The notes beneath the pieces were generated by a model that saw nothing but the letters and a program-made list of their open reading frames with translations, ran no database searches and was not told where the DNA came from. A stretch of DNA of 64,000 bases from Pontiella desulfatans (lineage in GTDB: Bacteria > Verrucomicrobiota > Kiritimatiellia > Kiritimatiellales > Pontiellaceae). This document shows positions 39,184 to 61,021 of the stretch, in pieces. The DNA lies in assembly GCF_900890425.1 (NCBI RefSeq), contig NZ_CAAHFG010000005.1, forward strand, positions 62,001 to 126,000, in the 5' to 3' direction. Each line of letters begins with the position of its first letter. The stretch's first letter is position 1. Both the position numbers and the translations under genes were made by a program.

Positions 39184-39309
39184 GTTTCAATGGAATTGAT
39201 TGCCGGGTGAATTCGAGAAACTGATTCGGCATAACATTGCAAGAATCGATCTTGCAAGATGTTGTGTTTTGTTTCCGATTTGCTCCTTAACAACGATAAG
39301 GAGCAACAA

Positions 39310-40557: not shown

Positions 40558-41501
40558 AAACCTTGAATAGAGAGCTTGAGCGCTACCTGTCCATCCGGCG
40601 AGGCCTTGGGTATAAACTGAATACGGATGAACGAATCCTTCGCAGGTTCATCGAGTTCATGGAGCAGGAAGAAGCGGCGCACATCAGCACCGGCTGTTTC
40701 CTTCGCTGGAAGGAGGCATTCGGGCATGCAAACACGCAAACCTGGTCGAGACGACTGACAGTGGTCAGAATCTTCGCCCAGTGGATGCACGGCATCGACC
40801 CCCGCCACGAAGTGCCGCCGCAATCACTGATACCCGGCCATGTCCGCCGCTCCCGGCCTTACATCTACAGCGAAGAGGAAATCAAGATGATCGTTGAAGC
40901 CGCAGCGGAGCTTCCTTCCCGCAACGGCATCCGTCCGCTGACCTACTCGACGTTCTTCGGACTCATCGCCGTTACCGGCATGAGAATCAGCGAAGCCGTT
41001 TCGCTCAATGTTGCCGATGTCGATCTCGAGAATGGAGTCGTTGCCGTACGAAAAGGAAAGCTGGGCAAGGAACGCTTGCTGCCGGTCTCTACGGATACAG
41101 CGGAACGGCTGGTTGCCTATGCCGTCGAAAGGGATCGGCTAAACGAATCGACACCCTCGGCATTCTTTATCTCGGATCATGGGGAACGGCTGGACGCCTG
41201 CGCCGCCCGCTACAACTTCGCCATCGTATGTCAGCGTGTCGGGCTGCGACCGGTTCAGAAGTTTTTCCGGCACGGGCGCGGGCCGCGCATCCATGACCTG
41301 CGGCATACTTTCGCCGTCCGCACGATGCTCAACTGGTACCGGGATGGAAAGGATCCGGCCCAGGAAATGATCAAGCTCGTCACCTACCTCGGGCATGAAA
41401 AGCCCGCACACACCTACTGGTACATCGAGGCGGCTCCTGAACTGCTAGAACTGGCGTCCCGCCGTGCGGAAGAATCCGCAGCAAGGGAGGTGGAATCATG
41501 A
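40554..41501 (+). CDS. RIT tyrosine recombinase B
   Basis: About 315 residues. An SAM-like N-domain (LERYLSIRRGLGYKLNTDERI) is followed by the catalytic domain with AVTGMRISEAVSLNV (Arg), VRKGKLGKERLLP (Lys), IHDLRHTFAVRTM (HxxR), YLGHEKPAHTYWYIEA (His and Tyr). All catalytic residues are present. The start overlaps gene A by ATGA and the end overlaps gene C likewise. Confidence 0.93.
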   Translation: MKTLNRELERYLSIRRGLGYKLNTDERILRRFIEFMEQEEAAHISTGCFLRWKEAFGHANTQTWSRRLTVVRIFAQWMHGIDPRHEVPPQSLIPGHVRRSRPYIYSEEEIKMIVEAAAELPSRNGIRPLTYSTFFGLIAVTGMRISEAVSLNVADVDLENGVVAVRKGKLGKERLLPVSTDTAERLVAYAVERDRLNESTPSAFFISDHGERLDACAARYNFAIVCQRVGLRPVQKFFRHGRGPRIHDLRHTFAVRTMLNWYRDGKDPAQEMIKLVTYLGHEKPAHTYWYIEAAPELLELASRRAEESAAREVES

Positions 41502-42493
41502 ACGCGCTGACACTACCCGCTCTGGTTCAACTGTTCTTCACCGACCGGCTCACCATCCAGATAAACGCAAGTCCCAATACGATCGCCAGCTACCGGGATA
41601 CCTTCCGCCTGCTGTTGCGCTTTGCCGGGGAACAACACGGCAAGGTGCCGACGAAACTCCGGGTCGAAGATCTGGATACCGAACTGGTGGGCGACTTCCT
41701 CGCCTATGTTGAGAACAAGCGCCGCAACTGCGCCCGCAGCCGCAATGCCCGGTTGGCCGCCATCCGGTCCTTCTTCAAATTCGTGGCCATGACCGAACCG
41801 GCATACCTGCTCCAATGCCAGCGAATACTGTCCATGCCCAGCAAGCGCCATGAGCAACGTACAGTGGAGTTTTTGGACCGCCGGGAAATGGATGCGCTGC
41901 TGTCTGCGCCGGACCGGTCCACATGGATCGGGCAACGCGATCATGCCATCCTGACACTGGCACTGCAAACCGGACTTCGAGCATCGGAGCTAATCAACCT
42001 ATGCCAATGCGATCTCATTGCCGGAACTGGTGCGCATGTCCAGTGTATGGGTAAAGGTCGAAAACAGCGCCTCACGCCTCTCAGGAAAGAAACCCTTTTG
42101 GTCATGAAGAACTGGCTTCGGCGGTATGGCGGAACTGAAGACGGGCCGCTCTTTCCAACCATCAGGGGAGGGAAACTCAGTCGAGACGCCCTGGAACATC
42201 TTGTGCGAAAGCATACGCTCACGGCTTCGAAAACCTGCCCCTCGCTGGCGACCAAGCGGGTGAGTCCGCATGTGCTTCGGCACAGCACCGCCATGGAGTT
42301 GCTGCACCACGGGGTGGATCAAACCGTTATCTCGCTATGGCTTGGCCATGAATCCGTTGAAACAACGAGAATCTACCTGCACGCCGATCTGCACCTTAAG
42401 GAAAAGGCGTTGGAAAAAGTGATGGCAACGGCCTCGAAACCAGGGCGGTATCTCCCCGCTGACAAGCTACTCGCCTTCCTCGAAGGCCTATAA
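41498..42493 (+). CDS. RIT tyrosine recombinase C
   Basis: 331 residues, XerC-like. ASPNTIASYRDTFRLLLRFA is the SAM-like domain. Catalytic motifs are ALQTGLRASELINL (Arg), CMGKGRKQRLTPL (Lys), SPHVLRHSTAMELL (HxxR), WLGHESVETTRIYLHAD (His and Tyr). It ends just before the structured right end of the element. Confidence 0.93.
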   Translation: MNALTLPALVQLFFTDRLTIQINASPNTIASYRDTFRLLLRFAGEQHGKVPTKLRVEDLDTELVGDFLAYVENKRRNCARSRNARLAAIRSFFKFVAMTEPAYLLQCQRILSMPSKRHEQRTVEFLDRREMDALLSAPDRSTWIGQRDHAILTLALQTGLRASELINLCQCDLIAGTGAHVQCMGKGRKQRLTPLRKETLLVMKNWLRRYGGTEDGPLFPTIRGGKLSRDALEHLVRKHTLTASKTCPSLATKRVSPHVLRHSTAMELLHHGVDQTVISLWLGHESVETTRIYLHADLHLKEKALEKVMATASKPGRYLPADKLLAFLEGL

Positions 42494-45977: not shown

Positions 45978-47939
45978 ATGAATAGAGCGGTAATAGAAAG
46001 CAGATATTTGAAGCGGGAACTGGTGTTCGATGCCGGGTCGATGCGCTCAATGGCATTTTATGCCGGAACGGGCAATGAACCGCTCGCGGATATCTCGGTT
46101 GCGGATGAAGCGACGGTCACGATTGACGGGATCGAATATGTGCTGGGCAGCACGGGCTGTTCTGCAGAAACCGTAAAGACTCCGAGGGGTCAGCAACTGA
46201 TCATTACCTGCGGTGAACAACCTGAACTTTCCGGTGTGGTCGTGAAACTGGTGTACGAGGCCTTTGACGATGTTCCGGCGCTGACTAAGCATATCAATGT
46301 GGAAAACGAAGGTCCGCGGGAGATATGCATCAACGGCATACAAGTCGAACGCATCAAACCGTTGATCGGAAAAAGTCATAAACTGTTGCTGGAGGACGAT
46401 TATGTCCGTGACGCGCTTACGGTGGATGGAAAACGAGTTTACAGCCCCTGGATCGAAAAACATCGCCGGTATATCGATGCCTTTCTGAATCCCGGTGAAG
46501 AGGCATACTGCTTTGCCTATCCGGTGGATATGGATTGGGAGCTGAGGGCCGGCGAACGTTTTGAGTCATTTAAGGTGTATGAGTTTGTTGTGCCGAATAC
46601 GGAAGAGGCGGGCCTGGCGGTCCGCAAGGCGACCCGCGCGCTTTTCCCGTGGACTTGTGACCGTGCGCTGGGCTGCAGCCTGGCGCCGGCGTCGAAGGTT
46701 GAGGAATATTATGTGGGCATTGACCGGGTTGCTGAAGCCGGCTTTGAATATGTCCATCTGAATCACGGCTGGATCAAGGGCGTGATGACGTCGCCCCTGT
46801 TTACCAATTACAGCGATTATGCGCTGCGCCCGGAGCTGTTTCAAAATGGGTGGGATGATATCCGCAAGCTGTCGGACTACGCGCACGCGAAAGGATTGCA
46901 GATTTCATTTTATTCTATCTATGTCAACACCTGGATGGAAGAGGGGGCGAATACCCCTAAAGCCTATACGGACCATGACTGGGAACTGATCTGGGCGGAT
47001 GACGACGACAGCAGTCGTTGGGGTACTACGTTGGATCCCGCAGCGGGCTGGGGCGAGGTGGTGAACCGGAAGCTGTCGGAGGCGATTGATAAGGGCGGTT
47101 TTGATGCCTACCATCTGGATGGCCCTTACTATGGCGATATTTCTGTGGCTGAAAACCGTTCCGTGAAACCCGGCGGACCGAATCAGATGCTGGCGTGGGA
47201 ATATCAGAAGACTTTCTACGAAAGGATGAAAGCGTCGGGTATTCATGGCGAGGCGGCCCAGGGATTCCAGGCATTTGCCCATGGCATGAGCCGAATTACG
47301 ACGACCGGTTATGAAGAGGGCGATTTCGGTGATAAACCGATCCAGCAGCAGATTCTGGCGAACCGCAAAGCCGCTTATGATTTTACGAAGCTATACCGGC
47401 CTGAGCAGGCCACAACAGTCCTTCCGATCGTTGCCTGGAGTCCGGATGAGGATGCGCCGGATCTGCTGGTACCGATGGAAGAACATGCAGATGAATACAA
47501 CGCCTACCTAGCCAATGTATATGGCTACGGATTTGAGGGAAAACCTTTTTGCAAAGTGCCCTTTGAAGGGCCGAAGAGCAAGGCGGTCGTGCAGCGCTGG
47601 CTGACCTTCTGGAAAGATCATTCCGAGTATTTTAAACAAGGGTATCTGCTCCATCTCAAGAAACCTGACGGGGAGCATCTTGATGCGGTCATGCATCTGC
47701 TCGATACCGGGCGGGAAGAAAAGGCCCTAGTCGTAGTGTATAACCCGGCAGAGCTGGAGTTGTCCGGCGGGATCAATCTTTCGGTCCCCGGATTTGAGGG
47801 GCGCGAAAAGACCTGGGGCTATAAGGCGGAATCCGGCGCGACCGGGACTGTGGAGGGGGACTGTCTTCCGGTCTCTGTACCCCCGTCTGACGCAACCTGG
47901 TACGAACTGTGGGAATTAAAAGAACAAGGGGACATCTGA
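45978..47939 (+). CDS. GH36-like (clan GH-D type) glycoside hydrolase
   Basis: 653 residues without a visible signal peptide. An N-terminal beta-sandwich (MRSMAFYAGTGNEPLADIS, VKLVYEAFDDVPALTKHINV) precedes a TIM barrel from about 220 to 560. FDAYHLDGPYYGD (Asp about 380) is a candidate nucleophile and EGDFGD lies in a later strand. A C-terminal beta-domain follows (EKALVVVYNPAELELSGGI). The layout fits GH36/GH31-type alpha-galactosidase-like enzymes. It is followed two bases later by the symporter, so imported oligosaccharides are probably cleaved inside the cell. The exact CAZy family is uncertain. Confidence 0.75.
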   Translation: MNRAVIESRYLKRELVFDAGSMRSMAFYAGTGNEPLADISVADEATVTIDGIEYVLGSTGCSAETVKTPRGQQLIITCGEQPELSGVVVKLVYEAFDDVPALTKHINVENEGPREICINGIQVERIKPLIGKSHKLLLEDDYVRDALTVDGKRVYSPWIEKHRRYIDAFLNPGEEAYCFAYPVDMDWELRAGERFESFKVYEFVVPNTEEAGLAVRKATRALFPWTCDRALGCSLAPASKVEEYYVGIDRVAEAGFEYVHLNHGWIKGVMTSPLFTNYSDYALRPELFQNGWDDIRKLSDYAHAKGLQISFYSIYVNTWMEEGANTPKAYTDHDWELIWADDDDSSRWGTTLDPAAGWGEVVNRKLSEAIDKGGFDAYHLDGPYYGDISVAENRSVKPGGPNQMLAWEYQKTFYERMKASGIHGEAAQGFQAFAHGMSRITTTGYEEGDFGDKPIQQQILANRKAAYDFTKLYRPEQATTVLPIVAWSPDEDAPDLLVPMEEHADEYNAYLANVYGYGFEGKPFCKVPFEGPKSKAVVQRWLTFWKDHSEYFKQGYLLHLKKPDGEHLDAVMHLLDTGREEKALVVVYNPAELELSGGINLSVPGFEGREKTWGYKAESGATGTVEGDCLPVSVPPSDATWYELWELKEQGDI

Positions 47940-47940
47940 A

Positions 47941-49767
47941 ATGTCGTTTGGTAACCTCCACCTGATCGATTGGATCGTGGTAATCATCTATTTTGTGGTC
48001 TGTATTATTGTTGGCCTGTTGTTTGTCAAAAAAGCCAGCGGCAGTACCGATGACTACTTTCTTGCCGGCCGGAAGCTTCCTTGGTGGATAGCCGGGACAT
48101 CTATTGTCGCCACCATGTTTGCCGCGGATACTCCGCTTTTTCATACTGGAAACGTGAGACAATTCGGTCTGGATGCAGGCTGGCTGTTCTTTATACCCGG
48201 ATTTGGTGTGGTGATGGCTGCGGTGCTGTTTGCGCGGTTGTGGCGCCGGGCGAGGGTAGTGACCGAAGTTGAACTCTTAGAGATGCGGTATTCAGGCAAG
48301 GCCGCCACGGTTTTCCGGGGATTTAACGCGGTATACGGCGGGGTCTTCAAGGCGGCCGTAACGCTGGGCTGGGTTACGCTTGCCATGGGCGTTATTCTCG
48401 AATCACTGTTCGGTATAGATCGATATATCGGCACCATGATCTTCATGGGCATTGTTTTGGTTTATTCCATCAGCTCCGGTCTTTGGGGGGTGGTTGCCAC
48501 GGACTTCATTCAGTACATCGTTGCTACATTCGGCACCATCTATCTTGCTTTTGCCGCGGTCAAGGAGTGCGGAGGCCTGGTCGCCATGCGGGAACAGCTG
48601 ATGGCTGTTCCTGATTGGAGTGGAAGTGCCATGCGCGTCATTCCCGATCCCTCTGCCTGGAATCCGAATTTCAGCTGGATGCTGATTATTGGCTGGCTGT
48701 TGATCTACAGTATTGAGCTGTCCACCTCCGGCGGCTTTATGGGGCAGCGCATCTATGCATCGAAGGATGAGAAGAATGCATCGCATTCGCTCCTGTGGTT
48801 CGGCTTCTGCTACTACGTACTGAACGGTTGGCCGTGGATCGTGACGGGGCTGGCTTCCATCATTATTCTCGGTGCCACCAACGAAGCCGCCGGACTAGAA
48901 AACTATGATGGCACCTATCCGGCGATGATTGTTAAACTGATGCCGGTCGGTATGCTGGGCATTATGGGCGCGGCAATGATTGCCGCCTTCATGTCCACTA
49001 TTTCCACGATTTTGAACTGGGGTTCATCGCTGATGGTGAACGATTTCTATCGCCGATTTGTCGTGAAAGGCAAGAGCAAGCATCATTATGTCTGGGCATC
49101 GCGGGCTTTCTCATTGGGACTCGCCGTATTCGGGGTCTGGTTTGCCTTCCAGTTCGACAGCATCACGCAGATTCTTCTGCGCATGCCGCTGTACCTGATC
49201 GGCGGTGTGTTGGTCTTTGTTTTCCGCTGGCTCTGGTCCCGTACCAACATATGGTCCGAGATTGCCGCCATGGTCGGTTCCATTGTTGTCGCGCTCTTTA
49301 TTGATTTTATTCTGGTGCCGAAACTGCACATCTGGGAGCCGAACGAGGCGATTCCCGACCATAACTGGTTTGTTTACTTCGGCCATAAAATGGTGCTGGT
49401 TCTGGTGGCCACGACCGTCATCTGGGTCATTACCACCTTGCTGACCAAGCCGGTGGATGATGAGACGCTGAAGAAATTTTATAAACACACTGTCCCGCCG
49501 GGGCCGGGCTGGAAGCGCATCCGGAAGCTCTGTGGAGAGGAAACACCGCAGCCTTCGCCGTTGAGTAAAATCCTGCTGGCCTGGCTGTCGGGGGTTGTCG
49601 GTCTCTTTGTCCTGTTGTTTGCAATCGGATACCTGGTCGCATGCCAATGGGTGATGAGCGGGGTGCTGCTGGCTGTGTCCGCAGCCGGGTTTATAGCCTA
49701 CTTCAAGCTGTACAGCACCTTAACGCACTACGATGACCTTGATCAGCAGGACTACGACGTAAGCTGA
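47941..49767 (+). CDS. Sodium:solute symporter (SSS) family transporter
   Basis: 608 residues with about 13-14 hydrophobic spans. Start IDWIVVIIYFVVCIIVGLLF, then SGSTDDYFLAGRKLPWWIAG and GTSIVATMFAADTPL, the conserved SSS core. A large late hydrophilic loop GPGWKRIRKLCGEETPQP precedes the last spans. It imports a sugar or related solute with sodium. ATG 47941 comes right after the hydrolase stop; the two likely form an operon. The ABC/TonB alternative is absent, as is common in Kiritimatiellota and Planctomycetota loci. Confidence 0.93.
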   Translation: MSFGNLHLIDWIVVIIYFVVCIIVGLLFVKKASGSTDDYFLAGRKLPWWIAGTSIVATMFAADTPLFHTGNVRQFGLDAGWLFFIPGFGVVMAAVLFARLWRRARVVTEVELLEMRYSGKAATVFRGFNAVYGGVFKAAVTLGWVTLAMGVILESLFGIDRYIGTMIFMGIVLVYSISSGLWGVVATDFIQYIVATFGTIYLAFAAVKECGGLVAMREQLMAVPDWSGSAMRVIPDPSAWNPNFSWMLIIGWLLIYSIELSTSGGFMGQRIYASKDEKNASHSLLWFGFCYYVLNGWPWIVTGLASIIILGATNEAAGLENYDGTYPAMIVKLMPVGMLGIMGAAMIAAFMSTISTILNWGSSLMVNDFYRRFVVKGKSKHHYVWASRAFSLGLAVFGVWFAFQFDSITQILLRMPLYLIGGVLVFVFRWLWSRTNIWSEIAAMVGSIVVALFIDFILVPKLHIWEPNEAIPDHNWFVYFGHKMVLVLVATTVIWVITTLLTKPVDDETLKKFYKHTVPPGPGWKRIRKLCGEETPQPSPLSKILLAWLSGVVGLFVLLFAIGYLVACQWVMSGVLLAVSAAGFIAYFKLYSTLTHYDDLDQQDYDVS

Positions 49768-49839
49768 GATCATAATTTAGGAGTCCGGCGCGGGTCGGAC
49801 GAATGGAAAATATAGTTAACCAAAAATCGAGAGATAGAT

Positions 49840-51798
49840 ATGAATATAAAAAAAACAGACGGTAAACTGGAGGTCAATGGCGACTGCTACACCTTGACGT
49901 ATGATGCGGAGCGTCCGCTGCATGTAAACATTATGTACTCTAACGGCATCGGTGCTGAATTCTTCGTGGCGTCCGGTTGTGACCGCGATGACGGAATCGA
50001 TGAGCTGATCGAATTGAGCGCGCCGACGATCGATGAGTCCGGCGAAACTGCGGTGTTGCAGTTTGTCGGGAAAACCACCCTGTGGGATAAAGTGGAATAC
50101 AGCTTTGAGCTGGGTACAGAACAGATTGTTTACGGCTACAAAGTCTACGGGCAGGGCAAACTCGAAAACGTTCGCTACTTTGAAGGCTTCCTCAAAGACG
50201 ATCCCGCGCGCGAAAAATATTTTTATCCTTACTTCTGCGGCCCGGGCCGTCATCTGGCCTACCATCGCCCGGTCAAGGATTTCATGACATCATCAACCCC
50301 CAACTTCGATGTGCTTTATACGTTTTGTGTGACCTCCGCTGACAAGCGCGTGTTCGGCTTCTACGAAGATGCAAGCATTCGTGTAGATGGGGATCGCCAT
50401 TACTTCGGCGGAGACTGGCTCGCAACCCCGGCTCCATTCCTCTTCATGATGGGAAATAAGGAACAGAAGAACTGGGTCACACTCGGCCTTGCTGTGAAAA
50501 CCGGCGAAGCCGGCTTCATGGGCTATCACTATCGTGGTGGCGAAGGGTTTGGTCTTGAGCTCGATTATTATGGCTACACCGAAGTGAACGGGGAGTGGGA
50601 AAGTCCCAAAATCCTGATGATGGAAGCCGGTAAGAACGTTTATGATGCCCTTGATGACCACACGGCATTTTTGGCTGAAAACGGATGCATGGCGAAGAAA
50701 GATCGCAGCGAAACTCCGACCTGGTGGAAAAAGCCGATCTTCGGCGGGTGGGGCGAGCAGGTCTATCACTCAAACCGCTGGGATAACTATTTGAGTGGTG
50801 ATCATGATGACTGGGCAAAAGACAACTGTGATAGGTTCTGCACGCAGGCGGCCTACGAAGAAATGCTCACGACCTTGGAGTCGAAAGGCATTGATCCGAC
50901 CATCCTCATCATTGATAACCGTTGGTTCCTGAACGAGTCACATCTCGAAGTCGATACGGAACTGTGGCCGGACCTCAAGGGCTTTATTGCCGATCAGCAT
51001 GCGAAGGACCGCAAGGTCATCCTGTGGGTATCTCCATGGAGCTACTGCAAGTCGGCAAAAGGCTCAGCGCTTCCGGTCGAGGAAAGCATGATGGTTCATG
51101 AAGATGAACTTTATTCGCTCGAGTTGGATACAGATGTCTTCTACAAAGCATGCAAGCGTGATGTCAAAAAGGTGACTCGCTATCATCCGCTGCCGGAACC
51201 GACCCTTACCGATCCCAACTGGAAGTATGTTGCTGACCCGCAAAACCCGGCATACATTAAACGCATTAAAGACCGCATCAAGTATCTGCTGTCTGAGGAC
51301 GGGCTGAATGCGGACGGGTTTGAGTTTGACTACACCCATTTCATTCCGCGTTTCCGGGCAACGAAGCCGGTTGGGTGTGAGCATGAGGTCAAGTGGGGCA
51401 ACGAGGCGCTTCATAACATGATCGAGCTTTATTATTATGGTGCGAAGGAAGCGAAGGAAGATGCATTGGTTATCTCGCATACCTTTAATCCATATTTCAA
51501 CGATGTGATCGACATGCTGCGCCTGCAGGATATCTACACGGATATGAAAAGCATTGTTCCGCAGATGGATCATCGTGCAAAGATTGCTCAGAAGGTTGCG
51601 CCTGCGTGTGAGATTCATACCGATCAGCATCCGATGCCGAGTTTAGAAGCGTGGGAAGAATATGCTCAGTACCAACCGGGAATCGGGAATCCGTGCCTCT
51701 ACTATGTTACTGGTATGGAAACGACCAAGGAAAAGATCACGGATGAGCAGTGGAAACTGCTGGGCGACGTCTGGAAGAAATACAACGACTCCCTGTAA
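49840..51798 (+). CDS. TIM-barrel glycoside hydrolase, clan GH-D/GH31-like
   Basis: 652 residues, no signal peptide. A beta-rich N-terminal half (EFFVASGCDRDDGIDELIELS; GPGRHLAYHRPVKDFMTSS) precedes a barrel: PIFGGWGEQVYHSNRW, IDPTILIIDNRWF, KVILWVSPWSYCKS and NADGFEFDYTHFIPRFR, whose Asp (about 496) is the candidate nucleophile. The end EYAQYQPGIGNPCLYYVTG completes the barrel. It resembles alpha-glycosidases of GH31/GH36 in topology, but the family assignment is tentative. Cytoplasmic, next to the symporter gene. Confidence 0.72.
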   Translation: MNIKKTDGKLEVNGDCYTLTYDAERPLHVNIMYSNGIGAEFFVASGCDRDDGIDELIELSAPTIDESGETAVLQFVGKTTLWDKVEYSFELGTEQIVYGYKVYGQGKLENVRYFEGFLKDDPAREKYFYPYFCGPGRHLAYHRPVKDFMTSSTPNFDVLYTFCVTSADKRVFGFYEDASIRVDGDRHYFGGDWLATPAPFLFMMGNKEQKNWVTLGLAVKTGEAGFMGYHYRGGEGFGLELDYYGYTEVNGEWESPKILMMEAGKNVYDALDDHTAFLAENGCMAKKDRSETPTWWKKPIFGGWGEQVYHSNRWDNYLSGDHDDWAKDNCDRFCTQAAYEEMLTTLESKGIDPTILIIDNRWFLNESHLEVDTELWPDLKGFIADQHAKDRKVILWVSPWSYCKSAKGSALPVEESMMVHEDELYSLELDTDVFYKACKRDVKKVTRYHPLPEPTLTDPNWKYVADPQNPAYIKRIKDRIKYLLSEDGLNADGFEFDYTHFIPRFRATKPVGCEHEVKWGNEALHNMIELYYYGAKEAKEDALVISHTFNPYFNDVIDMLRLQDIYTDMKSIVPQMDHRAKIAQKVAPACEIHTDQHPMPSLEAWEEYAQYQPGIGNPCLYYVTGMETTKEKITDEQWKLLGDVWKKYNDSL

Positions 51799-51827
51799 GG
51801 GTTGAGAGCGGCAAAAAGGTGAAGAAT

Positions 51828-54689
51828 ATGAGAAAAGTGATTAAATGGTTTGTGCTGCTTCTTGTTGCCCAGAACCTTTTTGCCGCTCCTGCGGTGCTGG
51901 AGGCGGGACGGTTTAAGCTGCGCTTCGCCGCAGACGGGAAGCCGGCATCGTTTGCGTTGCCGGATGGAACGGAACTGCTGAATGTAGGCGATCCCGGGCG
52001 GGGTTTTTATCTAAAGAATGCCAGTAAAGCAGTCATCGATCTGCCGGTGGTCTGGGTTCGGGATTCGAATCAACTGATCGTTGAATCCGAGAACCGCACC
52101 CAGCAGATCATCTTCGATCTGACGGAAGGCGATCAGTATGTGGGGTTGCAGATCAGGCAACTGAAAGGGATTCCGAAGTCCAGCGCGCTGACGCTGCACT
52201 TTGAGATGAATGCAGGCGGGAATGTGAAAGCACTCGCGCTCGACTTCATGACCCCGCACCTAGATCATCTGAAGGGTCGGATTCAGGTGGATTGGCCCTT
52301 CCTCTATCACCGCTATAAGGACGATCCGCTCGGCGGGTTTGCGCTCTACTGTCCAACGGATAAAACGGATGAAGACGATACCTTGCTGCATATGTGGGGT
52401 GAATTGGACCTTCCGCATCCGGCGGTGAATGGCGAGTGGGATTACGCGGCCGCCAAAAAGTGGATGAAACAATGGCTGGCGGAGTTTTCGGATCAAAGCC
52501 GCATGATGTTCGAAGCCGAGTCGCTGGAGGACCTGTATGAGGGCTCCAAATACGCCGAGGCCGCCGGGCTGAAGGGGATCTACCTGATGCCGTGGGTATG
52601 GCGCGGATCCTATTGGCCGACCGATATGACGAATGACGGGATTAATCTGGATGTATTCCCTGACGGCCGGAAGGATGTGGCGGAATTTTCTGCCTACCTG
52701 AAGGAAAGGGGCATGCGGCTGCTCTTTCATTATGTCAGCGGCGGAATCGGCTATAATGACCCCGTCTATATCGGCACCAAACCGGACCGCCGCTTGGCGA
52801 GCTGGGGCGGCGGGAAACTTGTGGGGCAGATTGATGCTGCCCAGACCACTATCCAGTTTCGGCCGGATAACGGAGTGGAGCTGCCGTACCGGATTCCCCG
52901 CGCCAATGTGCACAATTTTAATGGGCTGCCCCCGGCGATGCATTTTTTCCACAACTTCCAGATGATGCGTATCGGGGACGAGATCATTAAAGTCGGCTCC
53001 TTCGAGAATACGGATCAGGAAGTCTGGACGCTGAAGAACTGCGAGCGCGGGAAATTCACGACCCAGGCTGCTGCTCATGTTGAAGGGACTGATGCTTCCG
53101 GGCTGATCGATACCTATGACCAGAATTTCCTGCCGGACAATAATTCGACGCTGCTCGATGAAATTGCCGGTAATTTTGCCGGTCTGCTGAATGAATGCGG
53201 TGTGATGAACACCGAGTATGACGGCGGTGAGATCCATTGTTATGAAGGGCCGTCGAAATCGATCGGCTGGGGCTATAACAAATTTGCATGCAAGGTATAT
53301 ACCCAACTGGATCATCCGGTCATGGCAGACAGCAGCGCGGAACGCCCGCCGGAATGTAATTTTGAGTATAAGTTCAATGCCGTGAAAAAGCTGGTGGGGC
53401 CGATTAAAGGCCATCAATACTATGTGGCGTTGATGCCGGAGCATCCGTCGCGACCGGCCACGACCATGCTGGACGCGAACTTCCAGCTTAGTCAGGTTGC
53501 GGCCACCCGCAGCGCCTGCTTCGGGATTAAGACACAGGATCGTGGCGTAAGAATTTCAGATCTCAAGGCGCACGGCCTCGCTGCCGATATCTGCAAGCTG
53601 GTTGCGCAGTGGAAAAAGGCCAGTGACCTTATGACGGATGAACAGCGTCAGGCCATCCTCAGGAAAGGCGTTCGCTGGAACGACAATATCTGGCTGGGAG
53701 ACCGGCATACCGAAGATGACCTGGTGCAGGTTCTGAAAGAAGAGGACCATGCTTTCCTCATTGTTCCGGTTAAGGTGCTGACGCGGAACAATGAACGCGA
53801 TGTCAAATGGTGTGTCGGCCAGGAGCACGGCAGCATCGCTCCCAAGCAGTTTATCAGGCCGGGCGATGAACTGAAACTGCATAACCCCAATGACGAACAG
53901 GAGATGAAGTTTGTCCTGCGCGTGCTTTGGGAAACGGATTATGAGGATGAAGCCAATGTGGCTTTGGCGCCGGCCGCAACGAACCTGCAGGATCTGAATG
54001 ATACTCAGGCGTCGGATGAGGGTAACGCATTGCGCCTGAAATACCGGAATGACCGGGCGGAAGCGGTCTGGAACGGAGATAAACTTCCGGAGTGGGAGCA
54101 GACGGTCGATCTCAGCGCCAACCGCGCCATGGGCCTGTGGGTTGAGGGGGATGGTTCCGGCGCGTTGCTGCTGGTTCAGCTTCCTAAACGCGATTATGTG
54201 ATTCCCGTTGATTTCAAAGGACGGCGCTACATCGAGATTCCCCATGGGCAGGCCGCCTGGGCGGAAGGATTGTGGGGGTGGCGTATGGCCACCTGGAAGC
54301 ATGCGGATTACAATAATATTCATAAACTGAACATCGGCTTCGGCAAGGTTCCGGCATCAACGCATGCAGATATTTCTGTTGAGGGAATCAAAGCCCTGCG
54401 CGAAAAGGATGCTGAACTCGTTAACCCGGTTATTACCTGTGGAAAAGGCCGGATCAGAATCATGGGTACGATTGCAACCGGTCAGTATCTCGACTACAAG
54501 GGCGGCGATACCGCCACGGTCTACGACCGGAACTGGAATAAAGTGGAAGAGCTGAACGTACAAAAACAAAACTATTCCTGCGGGAACGGTCCCGTAACGG
54601 TTTCGGTTTCCGCCGACAATGCCGCGCGCCCATGGATGGAGATTCAGTGCACGACCGAAGGCAGCCTCATCCGGGTTCCAAAAAAATAG
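51828..54689 (+). CDS. Large secreted glycoside-hydrolase-like protein
   Basis: About 953 residues. The signal peptide [19 protein letters not shown] is cut before APAVLEAG. A beta-sandwich at about 30-190 is followed by a TIM-barrel-like middle: [56 protein letters not shown] (Asp about 465, Glu about 468) and [19 protein letters not shown]. Beta domains end the protein. I do not recognise a CAZy family. It is probably exported and acts on the intact polysaccharide. ATG 51828 is chosen for the signal peptide. Confidence 0.7.
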
Positions 54690-54732
54690 TTTTGAACGGA
54701 TTGATACATCAACATTCGGGAAAGGGACCACT

Positions 54733-56568
54733 ATGGCGGGAACCTGTTTGATGAGGATGGTCGTTGTGGCAGGTTTAATTACCGCAGTGGCTTATTCGGA
54801 GGGCAAACCACAGGCGACGAATGTGAGGTCGCCCAATGTGGTTATCGTGATTACCGATGACCAGGGCTATGGCGACCTGGCGTGTCATGGAAATCCGTAC
54901 ATCAGTACTCCCCATCTTGACCGGCTGGCCGGACAAAGTGTCCGGCTGGATAATTACCATGTCGACACCACGTGTGCACCGACCCGGGCGGCTCTGCTGA
55001 CCGGTCGGCACTCCAATCGCGTCGGGGTTTGGCATACCATTCAGGGCCGCAATATGATTCGCCGTCGTGAAATCACCATGGCGGATATTTTTGCGGACAA
55101 TGGCTATGCGACCGGCCTGTTTGGAAAGTGGCACCTTGGGGATGTTTATCCCTATCGCCCGGAAGACAACGGTTTTCAGCACTGCGTCTACCATCCGGCC
55201 GGTGGGGTCGGGCAGGCGCCGGACTACTGGGGTAACGATTACTTCGACGATACCTACATCAAAAACGGAACGTTTACGCGGTTCGAAGGGTTCTGCACCG
55301 ATGTCTGGTTTGAAGAAGGCATTGAATTTATCGAGGCCAACGCCAAAGCCGATACACCGTTTCTGGCCTATATTGCACCCAACGCACCGCATGGCCCGTT
55401 TTACTGCCCGAAGGAATATGCCGACCGGTATACTGGAAAACCCGGTGTGCCGCAGGCTGAGTTCTACGGTATGATTACACACATCGATGACAACATGGCG
55501 CGGCTTTTCCAGACATTGGAAACCTGCGGTGTTGCCGATAATACCATCCTCATTTTTACGACGGATAACGGCACGGCCGCCGGAACATGGAATGATGGAG
55601 GATTCAATGCCGGCATGCGCGGAACCAAAGGCTCGCAGTATGACGGTGGACACCGTGTTCCCTTTTTCCTGCGCTGGCCCGACGGCGGCCTCAGCACGGA
55701 ACAACGCATTTCAGATCTTACTGCCCATCTAGACATCCTGCCGACGCTGATCGATCTGTGCGGATTGACCGCTCCGGAAATTCAGTTTGATGGATTCAGT
55801 CTTCACGACCTTCTTTATAACGATGGAAACAACAGGCAGGAGCGTTCCATTGTGGTGGAAACACAACGGGTAGTGGATCCCGTCAAGTGGCGCAGTTGCA
55901 GCGTCATGACCGAGGACTGGCGGCTGATTGACGGCAAAGAACTCTATGACATGAGAACCGATCCCGGCCAGCAAACTGATGTCAGCGGGGATCATCCTGA
56001 AGTTGTTCAACGTCTGCGCGGAGAATATGAACAATTCTGGACCGATGTTTCGAAGGACCACGATCTGACCAGTTACATGCTGATCGGCTCCGATGAGTCT
56101 CCGGTTGTTACGTTGTCATCGCATGACTGGCTGGTTGAAGATGTCGCCTGGAATCAACCGCATGTACTGCAGGGTCGCTGTGCCAAGCCGGCGTATTGGG
56201 CCATAGAGATCGACCATGACGGTATCTATGAATTTTCGCTGCGGCGTTGGCCGGTTGAAGCTGATAAGGCCATTAATGATCCCAACGGCGGAAAAGGGTT
56301 TTCTTTTGATACGGCCCGTTTGTCCATAGGTGCTTTCAACGAGTCGAAATCGATTCCGGAAGGGGCGAAAGAGATCACCTTTCGGGTGCCGCTTAAGAAG
56401 GGTGTTGCGAAACTGGCGCCGCTGTTTTCCGGCGGAGGCGAGCAGGTCGCTCCGTATTATGTGTATGTGACGCACAACCCTGTTTCCGGCTGGAAGACCC
56501 CGCAGGGCATGGGAATCCCGGTGTATGATCCGGCTTATGGCCGGAGCCCCCCGCAGTTGAAAGATTAA
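54733..56568 (+). CDS. Formylglycine-dependent sulfatase (S1 family), secreted
   Basis: About 611 residues. The signal-like N-terminus [17 protein letters not shown] is followed by the sulfatase start [19 protein letters not shown]. The Cys-type active-site motif is [12 protein letters not shown] (Cys81, converted to formylglycine). Further metal and sulfate residues are in [22 protein letters not shown] and [16 protein letters not shown]-terminal extra domain spans about 430-611. It removes sulfate esters from a polysaccharide. No formylglycine-generating enzyme is in the window. The start ATG 54733 follows AAAGGGACC. Confidence 0.95.
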
Positions 56569-56627
56569 CGAGTAGCGCAGGGTAGATGCGGACCACCAAT
56601 GTGCCGATTTCGGCCCTACTGCGCCGC

Positions 56628-56646
56628 CTACCTCAAACTGTGGATG
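56628..56646 (+). promoter_or_regulatory. CTACC-AAACTGTGGAT motif, copy 1
   Basis: CTACCTCAAACTGTGGATG lies 76 bases before the fucosidase ATG. Close copies lie at 61104 and 62546. Confidence 0.55.
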
Positions 56647-56721
56647 TGCAGCTTAGAGCGGTGCGGTAGTATTTCACCATAATTTTAGCAGTATATTTGT
56701 ATTTGGAGAGGGTATCAGAAG

Positions 56722-58110
56722 ATGTGTAAGCGCGTGATGGGATTATTAGCGACTGTCGGAGTACTGTTGGGTTCGGCTTGTGCTGAGAGCAGTAAGATGG
56801 ACTGGTGGCAGCAGGATAAATTCGGGATGTTTATTCACTGGGGACCCTCCAGTGTAGCTGGGGTGGAGATCAGCTGGGCGCGTGAAAGCCACCCCTTTGA
56901 TCATCTGGGCGAATTGAATAATGTGCCGGATGAGGTCTACGATGCACTTCATAAAGAATTTAACCCTGTTGAATTTGATGCTGACGAAATTGTGCGTACG
57001 GCTAAAGAAGCGGGGATGAAATACCTGGTTTTTACCGCCAAGCATCATGACGGCTTTTCCATGTGGCCGACAGAATTGTCTGGTTACAACATTATGAACA
57101 CGCCTTATAAGCGCGATATTTGCAGGGAATTTGCAGCGGCCTGTCGTAAATATGGCTTGAAGCTAGGTTGGTATTATTCCACTCGGGACTGGTACCATCC
57201 GGATTACCTGGTCGATGACAACAGCAAGTATAACGATTTTTACCATGGGCAAATCCGTGAACTGCTGACGAACTACGGCGAGGTTTCTGTGCTTTGGTTT
57301 GATCATGTGGCCGGTGCCTGGAATGATTACCGCTTCAAGGAGCTGTTCGACATGATTTATGAGCTTCAGCCCGGAATTATTGTCAATGATCGCGCAGCCA
57401 AGTTTGTGCACGGGCATCTGGCCGGAACACCGGACCCGGAACTCGTTGAGTTGACTAAAGGTGATTTTCATACGCCGGAAGGTAAGGTCGGTGTTTTTCA
57501 TAAAGATTTCCCCTGGGAAACCTGTATGCCGATGTCCAAGGGGCCGGATGGGCATGGTGGCTGGTCCTACCGACCGGAAGCAATTACGGCGAGTTTTGAC
57601 AAATGTGCCGAGATGCTGGCGGCCTGTGTGACCGGCTGTGGCAACATGCTGCTGAACATCGGGCCGATGGCTGACGGCTCACTTCGTACGTCTGAATTCG
57701 AGAACCTCAAAGAATTCAAGCCCTGGATCGAAACGTATGGTGAAAGCATCTATGGAACTGAAGGTGGGCCCTTTATCAGTGGTCAGTGGGGCGGTTCCTG
57801 CATGAAAGACGATACGCTTTACCTACATATTTTCCGATGGGAGAATGGCACTCTGGAGCTTCCCGCTCTGCCGCGCACCGTTCTGACATGTGAAGAACTG
57901 GGTGGCGAGACCATTACTTTTCTGCAGTCCGATGATTCCCTCTCTCTTCGCATCAAAGACGGAAAAAAACGGAGCCTGCACAGCGTGGTTAAGTTGCAAT
58001 TGGAACCCGGGTTGGAGCTTGCTCTGATGCCCGTTGAGGGTCGCGCTCCGCGCAAGCAGCATGGATCGCTTGTCGATCCATTAGCCAGCAACAAGAAATC
58101 AGGTGAGTGA
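56722..58110 (+). CDS. Alpha-L-fucosidase (GH29), secreted
   Basis: 462 residues. The signal peptide KRVMGLLATVGVLLGSACA is followed by the GH29 core: WWQQDKFGMFIHWGPSSVAG, KYLVFTAKHHDGFSMWPT and LKLGWYYSTRDWYHPDY. The nucleophile loop VSVLWFDHVAGAW has Asp194, and GCGNMLLNIGPMADGSL comes later. A short C-terminal beta-domain follows. It releases terminal alpha-linked L-fucose. With the neighbouring sulfatase it points to a sulfated fucan or fucosylated glycan. It is probably transcribed from its own promoter carrying the CTACC motif. Confidence 0.95.
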   Translation: MCKRVMGLLATVGVLLGSACAESSKMDWWQQDKFGMFIHWGPSSVAGVEISWARESHPFDHLGELNNVPDEVYDALHKEFNPVEFDADEIVRTAKEAGMKYLVFTAKHHDGFSMWPTELSGYNIMNTPYKRDICREFAAACRKYGLKLGWYYSTRDWYHPDYLVDDNSKYNDFYHGQIRELLTNYGEVSVLWFDHVAGAWNDYRFKELFDMIYELQPGIIVNDRAAKFVHGHLAGTPDPELVELTKGDFHTPEGKVGVFHKDFPWETCMPMSKGPDGHGGWSYRPEAITASFDKCAEMLAACVTGCGNMLLNIGPMADGSLRTSEFENLKEFKPWIETYGESIYGTEGGPFISGQWGGSCMKDDTLYLHIFRWENGTLELPALPRTVLTCEELGGETITFLQSDDSLSLRIKDGKKRSLHSVVKLQLEPGLELALMPVEGRAPRKQHGSLVDPLASNKKSGE

Positions 58111-58350: not shown

Positions 58351-59022
58351 CTATTCTTCAGGGTCCATTGGCAGGATGCCGGATTGGTACGCTTTGGAGA
58401 TGGCGGCGGGGGCATTGATGACGTTCAGTTTTTCATAAATGTTTCGGACATGGGTGGCCACGGTGCCGTAGGTGATGTCGAGTTTGTCGCCGATTTCTTT
58501 TTTAACAAACCCTTCACCCAGCAGGGTCAGGATTTCGAGTTCCCTCGGAGAAAGTTCCCGTTCCGGCCGCTCCTTGATGGGTTTGGCCTTCAGCGCTTTC
58601 ATGATGTGGGTGGCAACGCCGGCATCCAGCGGGGCGTCCCCGTCCATTACATCGCGAATCCCTTGTTTGATCTGCTTAATGGTGGATGACTTGAGGATAT
58701 ACCCTGAAGCACCCTGCCTGATGGCGGTAACGACATCAGCTTCTTTATCGGACTGGGTCAGGATGATGACTTTTGCATCGGGAATGGATCTTCTGAAAAA
58801 GGGGAGTGCCTCCAGGCCCGACATGGCCGGCAGGTTCAGGTCAAGGAGGACGATGTCCGGTTCAATCCGCAAATCCCGATCCTGCAGGCTGTTCAGGGCC
58901 ACCTCGGCGGCTCCGTATTTTCCGGTGAGTTCCATGCCGGCGGTTTTGTTAATGGCCATTTCAATGACTTCCCGGTAGTCGGGGTTGTCTTCCACCAGCA
59001 TGATACGCATTGCTCTTTTCAT
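58351..59022 (-). CDS. NarL/FixJ-family response regulator
   Basis: 223 residues. The receiver has MLVEDNPDYREVIEMA, phospho-Asp61 in IVLLDLNLPAMSG and the KxxT-type switch LTQSDKEADV. The C-terminal LuxR-type HTH is ELSPRELEILTLLGEGFVKKE, then TYGTVATHVRNIYEKL. It is transcribed one base after the sensor kinase stop. Likely targets are the flanking polysaccharide genes, perhaps through the CTACC-AAACTGTGGAT motif, one copy of which lies in the divergent kinase promoter region. Confidence 0.95.
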   Translation of the reverse strand: MKRAMRIMLVEDNPDYREVIEMAINKTAGMELTGKYGAAEVALNSLQDRDLRIEPDIVLLDLNLPAMSGLEALPFFRRSIPDAKVIILTQSDKEADVVTAIRQGASGYILKSSTIKQIKQGIRDVMDGDAPLDAGVATHIMKALKAKPIKERPERELSPRELEILTLLGEGFVKKEIGDKLDITYGTVATHVRNIYEKLNVINAPAAISKAYQSGILPMDPEE

Positions 59023-59023
59023 A

Positions 59024-61021
59024 CTAACCTCTGAACTTCTTAAGTTGAAAACGTCGAATGTGCAGGTTCAGGGTGATGCAAGATCCCCCTGCTGCGGGAT
59101 GTTCGACAGAAATTTGCGCTCCGAGCAGTTTGGCCCGGCGTTTTAGTGAAGAAGGTATATTAGCGCCATCGGGCTTCGTTATTCCTCGACCGTTGTCTTC
59201 AACCGACAATATTACGTGTGGCGGTTTGGCGATCAGACGGGTGTATACGTGGGTGGCATTTGCATGCTTGTGTGCATTCACCAGGCATTCTTTGTAAAAG
59301 AGAAACAGGTCATTCTGTTTACGGGGCGGAATATGGGCCAGGTATTCCTGTCCCTCGATGGATATTTCGTGATCCAGGTTAGCCAGAATACGGGTGGCGG
59401 CACGCTGCATATCGTTCTCGAGGCCCGTGAACAGCCCCTTGGCTTCCTGCATGTTGATGATATGCCGCACAGCTGAACCGGTGCGCTCCGTGACACTACG
59501 GATGCGTTGAAGAAAAAGTGTCAGATCTTCCGGTTCCTCGCGGGCTTCATCGGCCATATCACTCAGCAGGCCGATGGTGTGGAGGTTGGCGCCGAGTTCG
59601 TCGTGGAGATCGGCGGCAAACCGCTCTTTCAGTCTTGTCAACTGGTGCATGTGGATCATCCGTTCAACGAGGACGGCAATAATGATCCCGGCCACCAACA
59701 ATACTGCCAGCCAGCTCATGATACGAAGATGAGTTTTTTGACGCGCATACCGCCTGTTCAGTTCCTGAATGATTAATGGACGTTCGTTTTCCAGTTTATG
59801 ACGGCGGGCGAGTTCGTTCATCCACTGGCGGGTCGGCAGGATGTCTCCGTAAAGGTTCCGGCCATCGGTCAGTGTTCTGAAAGAACGCGTGGCATTACCC
59901 AGCTGGAAGCTGGCGCCCACCGGTTGGCCGAGCGCAACGTTACGGCCTTCGGAGAACAGTTCGACTTCCGCAAAGCCGATGCGGGAGCCTGATTCGGTAA
60001 GGCTCGTGTAGATATAGGGTTCAACGGCACTGAGCCGAATATACCTGCAGCTGGACGCCGGGAACCGGCGTGTGATGATGGGGCCGATGTCAAAAATGGA
60101 ACGCGTATGAAATTCTAACAGGATTCGGGGATCTGAAAAATCTTCCCGAGTAGAGCCCTCCAAGATGAGCCGGGTAGGAATACCGAAGTTGGATGGGGTG
60201 GACTGGGGAACCGTGTCGCTCAAATCGACTGCATGAAGATGGATACGGTTGACGGGATAGGTGTCGCCGAGATCAAAGGTCAAGGAAGGATGGTCGCCTA
60301 TGCCGGTACGACTTACCATCGCGATACTCTGCTCACCCGATGCCGCATCCATGAGGTAGGGGACGAAGCCGTCTACAAGATAGTTTTTGTGCCGTGCACT
60401 GCCTTCTTCCGCATCCGGATGGGGTGTATGAACGGTTTGGTGAAGCGCGACATTTTCCTCTCCGGAAAAAACCATGATTTCGGCCAGTTCCAGATCAAAA
60501 GCCCCGTCGAATGCGCGCGGCGAGAGACGGGTGGCTTCCAGGCGTATCCAGGATGCGGTTACGGAGCAGGGAATCAGCAGCGGGGCAATCCGCGGAAGGA
60601 TTTGATCGGCGCTACTGTATTCTGCAATCACGTTGGTGGTCTGGTCGGTTCCGGCGAGGATTCGAAACTTTTCGGGAAAACCATCGGCTTTGAAGCCCCT
60701 TTTGGTATCCCTCCAAATGACCGGCACCAATATGACCTGGTCAATCGGAGTTTCCCCCGCCAGATCAATCTGAACCCATTCCGGATTTTCTGCTGTATCA
60801 TGGCTGTAGGAACGATACCCGATAGAACCGATTCCCGTTCGCATACTGTAGTGTGCCAGCTGTTGCAGCTCTGTATCGATCTTGTAGAGTTTATCCTCAA
60901 GTTGAGTAAGCGATAATTCTTTGAAAATATGGCCAGGGGTATTGGCGAACGCCATCGTGATGAACACGGCGGCTGCCAGCAGGGTAAGGTACTTCTTTAA
61001 TCCTGGTTTTGATTTGCTCAT
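59024..61021 (-). CDS. Sensor histidine kinase with discoidin-like periplasmic domains (HisKA_3)
   Basis: 665 residues. TM1 or signal LKKYLTLLAAAVFITMAFA. The periplasmic region of about 400 residues holds two F5/8-type-C-like modules: NPEWVQIDLAGETPIDQVIL and HPSLTFDLGDTYPVNRIHLH each open one, and each ends in an AEIMVFSGEENVAL or AEVELFSEGRNVAL segment. TM2 is at about 435-455. HisKA_3 is LKERFAADLHDELGANLHTI (His about 475), then HATPase_c (SVEDNGRGI). It probably senses carbohydrate and phosphorylates the NarL-type regulator encoded next. Confidence 0.92.
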   Translation of the reverse strand: MSKSKPGLKKYLTLLAAAVFITMAFANTPGHIFKELSLTQLEDKLYKIDTELQQLAHYSMRTGIGSIGYRSYSHDTAENPEWVQIDLAGETPIDQVILVPVIWRDTKRGFKADGFPEKFRILAGTDQTTNVIAEYSSADQILPRIAPLLIPCSVTASWIRLEATRLSPRAFDGAFDLELAEIMVFSGEENVALHQTVHTPHPDAEEGSARHKNYLVDGFVPYLMDAASGEQSIAMVSRTGIGDHPSLTFDLGDTYPVNRIHLHAVDLSDTVPQSTPSNFGIPTRLILEGSTREDFSDPRILLEFHTRSIFDIGPIITRRFPASSCRYIRLSAVEPYIYTSLTESGSRIGFAEVELFSEGRNVALGQPVGASFQLGNATRSFRTLTDGRNLYGDILPTRQWMNELARRHKLENERPLIIQELNRRYARQKTHLRIMSWLAVLLVAGIIIAVLVERMIHMHQLTRLKERFAADLHDELGANLHTIGLLSDMADEAREEPEDLTLFLQRIRSVTERTGSAVRHIINMQEAKGLFTGLENDMQRAATRILANLDHEISIEGQEYLAHIPPRKQNDLFLFYKECLVNAHKHANATHVYTRLIAKPPHVILSVEDNGRGITKPDGANIPSSLKRRAKLLGAQISVEHPAAGGSCITLNLHIRRFQLKKFRG

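What the first reader, a model, noticed from the sequence alone, without database searches (positions are those of the whole stretch)
45978..54689. Three large TIM-barrel-like hydrolases of uncertain family around one symporter
Genes at 45978, 49840 and 51828 have beta-sandwich plus barrel layouts and candidate nucleophile loops but match no CAZy family I can name with confidence. With the sulfatase and fucosidase they may form a new degradation pathway.
Basis: partly seen in the sequence, partly recalled or inferred. Interest (0 to 1): 0.6.

Follow-up and report, generated by a model that had tools for sequence, protein, structure and literature searches.

The report
Gene cluster for sulfated fucose polysaccharides
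A marine-type bacterium carries a compact set of enzymes that probably cut up a sulfated, fucose-containing seaweed-type polysaccharide; two of its three puzzling enzymes are distant cousins of known alpha-galactosidase-type families, and the third belongs to no curated protein family and carries a domain otherwise seen in phage tails.

Summary
The three genes are real and collinear with a symporter, a sulfatase and a fucosidase. They are not equally unknown. The gene at 49840 passes Pfam's GH31 cut-off. The gene at 45978 has no Pfam family but folds end to end like GH36 alpha-galactosidases (Z 25.7, 553 residues), with its Asp381 on the GH36 nucleophile; it lacks the GH36 KxD motif. The gene at 51828 matches no Pfam (above cut-off) or NCBIfam family. 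Its model is a beta-sandwich plus TIM barrel, remotely related to GH36/GH31, with a phage-tail-like domain inserted before strand 4 and a CBM11-like domain; Asp465 is kept in 55 of 55 relatives, the acid/base is unresolved. Relatives occur across Verrucomicrobiota, Planctomycetota and other MAGs, next to GH29 fucosidases in 10 of 35 loci (1.2 expected). One MAG has the same cluster (80% DNA identity over 10.6 kb) followed by L-fucose permease and isomerase genes. The sulfatase is nearest exo-4S-kappa-carrageenan sulfatase. Best reading: a utilisation locus for a fucose- and probably galactose-containing sulfated polysaccharide (galactofucan-like), a known kind of system with one probably new enzyme family. 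No activity was tested.

The parts
45978..47939 (+). Gene 1: GH36-like enzyme without signal peptide (judged by eye); sandwich, TIM barrel, C-terminal sandwich; Asp381 at the GH36 nucleophile place, Glu447 a candidate acid/base
   Evidence: No Pfam/NCBIfam family over cut-off; model pLDDT 75.7; VIA Z 25.7 over 553 residues to GH36 2xn0; hhalign to GH36 E 3.3e-8 with D381 on KxD Asp; D381, E447 invariant in 15 of 15 rows
47941..49767 (+). Sodium:solute symporter (SSF)
   Evidence: Pfam PF00474 129.6 bits; 94% identical in L085
49840..51798 (+). Gene 3: divergent GH31 enzyme, no signal peptide (by eye); Asp497 nucleophile
   Evidence: PF01055 28.6 bits, cut-off 23.5; profile to GH31 alpha-galactosidase 8j53 E 7.8e-16 with the DGxKxD motif aligned; D497 invariant in 18 of 18 rows
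51828..54689 (+). Gene 4: secreted (signal-peptide-like start, by eye) multidomain protein of a family without a curated model; putative glycoside hydrolase, Asp465 the likely nucleophile
   Evidence: No Pfam over cut-off, no NCBIfam; model pLDDT 86.2, pTM 0.87; fold relatives GH36/GH31; D465 in 55 of 55
52806..53117 (+). Domain of gene 4 (about residues 327-430) inserted between barrel strands 3 and 4; resembles a phage tail protein domain
   Evidence: PF23666 weak in 17 of 24 members, best E 1.1e-4; phrog_1101 tail protein in 6 of 24, best E 9.2e-7, falling in this stretch in the five of those members that were re-run; 84-104 aa present in 55 of 55
53946..54413 (+). CBM11-like domain of gene 4 (residues 707-862)
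   Evidence: VIA Z 12.0, 142 residues, 3.4 A to CBM11 6r31; region present in 45 of 55 relatives
54727..56568 (+). S1-type sulfatase with signal-peptide-like start
   Evidence: PF00884 189 bits; nearest solved sequence exo-4S-kappa-carrageenan sulfatase 6prm, E 5.3e-50
56722..58110 (+). GH29 alpha-L-fucosidase, signal-peptide-like start
   Evidence: PF01120 243 bits; nearest solved sequence alpha-L-fucosidase 6gn6 E 7e-63
58351..61021 (-). Response regulator (58351-59022) and histidine kinase with F5/8C-type sensor domain (59024-61021), likely regulators
   Evidence: Pfam HATPase_c over cut-off; F5/8C matches just under cut-off; similar kinase beside gene-4 relatives in L099, L180, L181 and beside the second own-genome set of relatives

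Best explanation
The block 45978-58110 is a polysaccharide utilisation locus for a sulfated heteropolymer of L-fucose and, probably, alpha-linked D-galactose (galactofucan-like). Outside the cytoplasm, gene 4 cuts the polymer (putative alpha-glycosidase, nucleophile Asp465, held on the substrate by its CBM11-like and tail-like domains), the sulfatase removes sulfate from galactose-type residues, and the GH29 enzyme removes alpha-L-fucose. The SSF symporter imports what is left, and the two enzymes without signal peptide, gene 1 (GH36-like) and gene 3 (GH31), finish the oligosaccharides inside. Shown: gene order and its conservation, domain make-up, family links, fucosidase association, fucose genes next to the sister cluster. 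Inferred: location of each protein, substrate, bond specificity, order of steps, and catalysis by gene 4.
For: Same cluster in L085 continues into FucP (520.7 bits, cut-off 280.4) and FucI (1044 bits, cut-off 850), with a lactaldehyde-reductase-like gene below its cut-off; L085 also has a Melibiase-family gene (30.6 bits, cut-off 27). GH29 within the flanks of 10 of 35 gene-4 relatives against 1.18 expected from each genome's own GH29 density, 0 of 200,000 simulated draws reaching 10. The other gene-4 paralogues of this genome (C1) lie among a GH29, a GH95 and a sulfatase. Sulfatase nearest to exo-4S-kappa-carrageenan enzymes; genes 1 and 3 nearest to alpha-galactosidases. Own genome has FucI and 55 GH29 matches. 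Size and GC fit Pontiella desulfatans F1 (8.6 Mbp, 56.0%), which grows on fucoidans, L-fucose and D-galactose (PMC7356697, passages).
Against: No activity data. 6 of 30 genomes with gene-4 relatives have no GH29 match, so the family is not tied to fucosidases everywhere. Against gene-1/gene-3 neighbourhoods as control (2 of 32 regions with GH29) the excess is only p=0.018, or 0.036 when six further gene-4 regions without GH29 are added. No acid/base found for gene 4; GH13 barrels tie with the GH36 galactosaminidase in VIA Z. FucP/FucI are not beside the cluster in this genome. Gene 1 lacks the GH36 KxD lysine and gene 3 has Glu for it, so alpha-galactose specificity is uncertain.
Confidence: 0.5

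Rival explanations
1. The substrate is a red-algal sulfated galactan (kappa-carrageenan or porphyran type); the GH29 enzyme acts on an L-galactose or rare fucose branch.
For: Sulfatase nearest exo-4S-kappa-carrageenan sulfatase; genes 1 and 3 nearest alpha-galactosidases; P. desulfatans F1 is reported to use kappa-carrageenan; GH29 contains exo-alpha-L-galactosidase 7lnp.
Against: FucP and FucI directly follow the sister cluster; GH29 is far nearer to fucosidase 6gn6 (7e-63) than to 7lnp (6.9e-27); neither the six cluster genes nor the proteins scanned from L010-L014 gave a Pfam carrageenase or agarase match (not every ORF was scanned).
Confidence: 0.2
2. Gene 4 is not an enzyme but a secreted binding or presenting protein: a barrel that has lost catalysis, carrying binding domains.
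For: No conserved acid after strand 6; strand 6 irregular in the model; the tail-like domain holds two of the three positions invariant in all 55 (E385, R407; only polar and aromatic residues of 200-650 were examined).
Against: Asp465 at the end of strand 4, the clan GH-D nucleophile place, is invariant in 55 of 55, and Glu513 (47 of 55) and Glu468 (44 of 55) remain as candidates.
Confidence: 0.15
3. The cluster degrades a fucosylated, sulfated glycan of animal or bacterial origin (mucin- or exopolysaccharide-like) rather than an algal polysaccharide.
For: Gene-4 relatives are mostly from MAGs whose record titles name lakes, bogs, fens or no sea source; FpGalactosaminidase, a blood-group A enzyme, is among the nearest folds of gene 4.
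Against: The likely host strain was isolated from fucoidan enrichments; diatoms also make sulfated fucose polymers (PMC8857213, abstract start and passages).
Confidence: 0.15

Closest known systems
PUL-like GH29/sulfatase loci of Verrucomicrobiota (PMC8857213)
   Same: Fucosidase, sulfatases, alpha-galactosidase-type GH31/GH36 enzymes and symporters clustered without SusCD
   Different: Gene 4, absent from Pfam and NCBIfam, and the trio of remote GH-D-type enzymes around one SSF symporter are not described in the passages read
GH36 alpha-galactosidases (2xn0, AgaSK 2yfn)
   Same: Gene 1 matches end to end in fold, nucleophile Asp aligned
   Different: About 10-15% identity, below Pfam GH36 cut-offs, no KxD lysine, Glu at the candidate acid/base
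GH31 alpha-galactosidases (8j50-8j53)
   Same: Gene 3 barrel and DGxKxD nucleophile motif align
   Different: Only about 125 profile positions align; Lys of the motif is Glu495 in the window
FpGalactosaminidase of Flavonifractor plautii (8x1b, 9awt)
   Same: Gene 4 N-terminal sandwich plus barrel superpose (413 residues, Z 12.7)
   Different: 11% identity; it aligns only to gene-4 residues 22-604, and gene 4 adds a tail-like insertion and a CBM11-like domain
Phage/GTA tail protein domain (PF23666, phrog_1101)
   Same: Insertion domain of gene 4 shares sequence motifs
   Different: Sits inside a secreted TIM-barrel protein of bacteria, not in a tail protein

Membership tests
GH31 (gene 3, 49840-51798) | Match to the GH31 barrel model over the curated cut-off | tested here: met
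   28.6 bits against 23.5; 13 of 18 relatives match at E 0.1
GH31 (gene 3, 49840-51798) | Nucleophile Asp at the end of strand 4 | tested here: met
   D497 invariant in 18 of 18, aligned with DGFKFDG of 8j53
GH31 (gene 3, 49840-51798) | Acid/base Asp and activity | not testable with these tools
   Alignment to solved enzymes ends before the acid/base; no assay
GH36 (gene 1, 45978-47939) | Match to Pfam GH36 models over cut-off | tested here: not met
   GH36N 13.8 bits against 27; no Melibiase match
GH36 (gene 1, 45978-47939) | Three-domain GH36 fold | tested here: met
   Z 25.7, 553 residues, 5.0 A to 2xn0
GH36 (gene 1, 45978-47939) | KxD nucleophile motif | tested here: not met
   Asp381 aligns with the KxD Asp, but the Lys is His (HLD); relatives vary
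Clan GH-D (gene 4, 51828-54689) | N-terminal sandwich plus TIM barrel of GH36/GH31 type | tested here: inconclusive
   Foldseek ranks GH31 and GH36 first among named families; VIA ties GH36 galactosaminidase with GH13 barrels; profile links E 9.8e-7 to gene 1's family, 0.0024 to GH36, 0.0095 to GH31
Clan GH-D (gene 4, 51828-54689) | Asp nucleophile after strand 4 and acid/base after strand 6 | tested here: inconclusive
   D465 55 of 55; no conserved acid after strand 6, E513 47 of 55 after strand 5
GH29 (56722-58110) | Alpha_L_fucos model over cut-off | tested here: met
   243.1 against 25.2 bits
S1 sulfatase (54727-56568) | Sulfatase model over cut-off and CxPxR maturation motif | tested here: met
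   189 against 25 bits; CAPTR in the translation, CAPSR in L085; motif rule recalled
PF23666 Rcc01698_C (insertion in gene 4) | Match over the curated cut-off | tested here: not met
   18.4 against 27 bits in the window protein; weak matches in 17 of 24 members

The most novel reading that the evidence does not exclude
Gene 4 founds a new glycoside hydrolase family at the edge of clan GH-D, spread over Verrucomicrobiota, Planctomycetota, Lentisphaerae and Hydrogenedentes, that opens sulfated fucose-containing polysaccharides and uses a domain shared with phage tail proteins, inserted next to the nucleophile strand of the barrel, to hold the chain.
Probability: 0.4. Interest if true: 0.65.

Novelty: new variant of a known kind. 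Interest (0 to 1): 0.42.

Why it matters
Fucose-containing sulfated polysaccharides are broken down slowly and are discussed as a store of carbon in the sea (PMC12786026, abstract start). [quoted passage not shown] A compact, conserved six-gene set with one enzyme family that lacks any curated model is a directly testable candidate for missing steps.

Tried and rejected
Ordinary family searches of gene 4 against Pfam, NCBIfam and the PDB by sequence gave nothing over cut-off. The Foldseek rows at the top for gene 4 (8a1a, 8a19) are 1345-residue constructs aligned at TM 0.2-0.3 and were not used. The viral fold library gave only scattered low-TM rows and does not by itself support a phage link of the insertion; that rests on sequence profiles. 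Profile comparisons of gene 4 with GH31, of gene 1 with GH31 and of gene 4 with GH36 were weak and are not claimed. The idea that the three enzymes are recent duplicates of each other is rejected: they share at most remote profile similarity. A strict fucosidase link of gene 4 was rejected because 6 of 30 genomes have no GH29. No paper describing the gene-4 family was seen in searches (listings with abstract starts; passages read in PMC7356697, PMC8857213, PMC6388578); subscription papers are not held, and the 2020 Lentimonas fucoidan paper known from memory could not be opened. dbCAN/CAZy models were not available, so absence from CAZy is not shown.

Rows dropped: one GH29 hit of 23 bits in L093 was left out of the count; regions L171, L172 and L175-L177 were taken as repeats of L098, L111, L113, L114 and L103 from contig lengths and left out of the second Fisher count; gene-4 relatives under 650 aa, over E 1e-15 or with a repeated 200-residue stretch were left out of the 55 (89 hits); of the 18 gene-3 regions, L165 showed no gene-3 ORF in the non-overlapping list but was kept in the control. 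Sulfatase neighbours were seen in 10 of 35 gene-4 loci, two of them at only 43 and 53 bits, but no background was computed.
Full report
Observation. The window is G000:C5:62001-126000 of an 8.66 Mb genome in six contigs. The three ORFs exist at the stated places. The order is gene 1 (45978-47939), SSF symporter (47941-49767), gene 3 (49840-51798), gene 4 (51828-54689), sulfatase (54727-56568), GH29 (56722-58110), all on the plus strand with gaps of 1 to 153 bases, then a response regulator and a histidine kinase on the minus strand. Genome size and GC (window 55.3%) fit Pontiella desulfatans F1 (8.6 Mbp, 56.0%; PMC7356697, passages); identity of the strain is not proven.

What the three proteins are. 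Gene 3 passes Pfam's GH31 barrel cut-off (28.6 against 23.5 bits); a profile of 18 sequences finds GH31 alpha-galactosidase 8j53 at E 7.8e-16, with the nucleophile motif aligned. Asp497 is invariant in 18 of 18. Gene 1 has no family over cut-off. A profile of 10 sequences finds GH36 2xn0 at 7.8e-6, and one of 15 finds 8k1a and 2xn0 at 7e-9. Its model (mean pLDDT 75.7, with low-confidence loops at 317-351, 386-400, 446-449 and 487-494) matches GH36 enzymes from end to end: Foldseek 1.7e-23, VIA Z 25.7, 553 residues, 5.0 A. GH27 and GH13 enzymes follow at Z 20-23, most of them over the barrel part only. Profile comparison with three GH36-type proteins gives E 3.3e-8 and puts Asp381 on the GH36 nucleophile. 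The lysine of KxD is missing. Glu447 is invariant in 15 of 15 and sits 66 residues downstream; GH36 entries in the listing are titled as D478A and D548N mutants, 70 apart. This is suggestive, but Glu447 lies in a low-confidence loop.

Gene 4 has no Pfam family over cut-off and no NCBIfam family. The model from 24 sequences is good (pLDDT 86.2, pTM 0.87): N-terminal sandwich (about 22-200), TIM barrel (about 208-616), C-terminal sandwich, CBM11-like domain (707-862, Z 12.0), final beta domain. Foldseek's first named families are GH31 and GH36. VIA gives FpGalactosaminidase Z 12.7 over 413 residues across sandwich and barrel, but GH13 barrels and rBAT reach 11.5-13.0. By sequence it links to FpGalactosaminidase (E 2.5e-4, 57 positions) and to gene 1's family (E 9.8e-7, 66 columns), and only weakly to GH36 or GH31. 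So it is a sandwich-barrel glycosidase relative probably near clan GH-D, not a shown member. In 55 aligned sequences Asp465, at the end of strand 4, is invariant; Glu468 is kept in 44 and Glu513 in 47. The acid/base is unresolved.

The inserted domain. Between barrel strands 3 and 4 lies a stretch of 84-104 residues in all 55 sequences. It matches Pfam PF23666 weakly in 17 of 24 members and PHROG 1101, tail protein, in 6 of 24, best E 9.2e-7; in the five of those members that were re-run the match falls in this stretch. Glu385 and Arg407 within it are invariant in 55 of 55. Relatedness to the tail domain is likely, its role unknown.

Distribution. Gene-4 relatives are in 20 of 288 genomes of the phylum, the own genome included (3 of the 7 other same-genus genomes), and in 35 named loci titled as Verrucomicrobia, Planctomycetota, Lentisphaerae, Hydrogenedentes and other MAGs. 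Genes 1 and 3 are in 9 and 19 of 288, own genome included, and in no other same-genus genome examined (7 in each; 10, gene 1 only), so the block looks acquired. Three tandem tyrosine recombinases lie 3.5 kb upstream.

Function. L085, a Verrucomicrobia MAG, has genes 1 to 5 in the same order at 80% DNA identity over 10,632 bases (proteins 76-94%), the GH29 gene before them, a Melibiase-family gene (30.6 bits, cut-off 27), and then L-fucose permease and L-fucose isomerase, both over NCBIfam cut-offs, with a lactaldehyde-reductase-like gene below its cut-off. GH29 genes lie within the flanks of 10 of 35 gene-4 loci; 1.18 were expected from each genome's GH29 density. Relatedness of loci and the general clustering of CAZymes inflate this; against 32 neighbourhoods of gene-1 and gene-3 relatives (2 with GH29) the p value is 0.018, or 0.036 with six more gene-4 regions that have none. 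Six of 30 genomes with gene-4 relatives lack GH29 altogether. In this genome the second set of gene-4 paralogues on C1 lies with GH29, GH95 and a sulfatase and beside one of the 13 copies of the window's type of histidine kinase; a similar kinase is beside gene-4 relatives in L099, L180 and L181. The sulfatase is nearest to exo-4S-kappa-carrageenan sulfatase, the GH29 to a fucosidase.

Together these point to a sulfated polymer of L-fucose with galactose-type residues. By eye, gene 4, the sulfatase and GH29 begin with signal peptides and genes 1 and 3 do not, which suggests cutting outside, import by the symporter, and completion inside; no predictor was run. Since L085 has its own fucose permease, the SSF symporter more likely carries something other than free fucose (inference).

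Comparison. Loci with GH29, sulfatases, GH2/GH31/GH36 enzymes and transporters without SusCD are described in Verrucomicrobiota (PMC8857213, passages), and strains F1 and F21 grow on fucoidan (PMC6388578 and PMC7356697, passages). The system is therefore of a known kind; gene 4 is the part that may be new. CAZy itself could not be searched.

Noticed in passing
window 39259-42493: Three tandem tyrosine recombinases (Phage_integrase over cut-off in all three), a trio like the RIT elements known from memory, upstream of the cluster; an ArdC-type anti-restriction gene is at 38563-39180.
   Followed up: partly
window 59024-61021 and G000 C1/C2: The F5/8C-sensor histidine kinase has 12 relatives in this genome (nine at 45-58% identity), both gene-4 clusters having one close by: a possible family of polysaccharide sensors.
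   Followed up: partly
G000 whole genome: 55 GH29 matches in one genome but only two Melibiase and three GH31 matches, one of the three being gene 3.
   Followed up: no
L014:14045-16564: A large protein with the middle domain of hydrazine synthase alpha (HZS_alpha, 115.5 bits) near the gene-4 paralogues on C1.
   Followed up: no
L047/L132 and L054: Gene-1 relatives interrupted by in-frame stops (TAG, TGA) in two genomes; sequencing error, pseudogene or recoding not examined.
   Followed up: no
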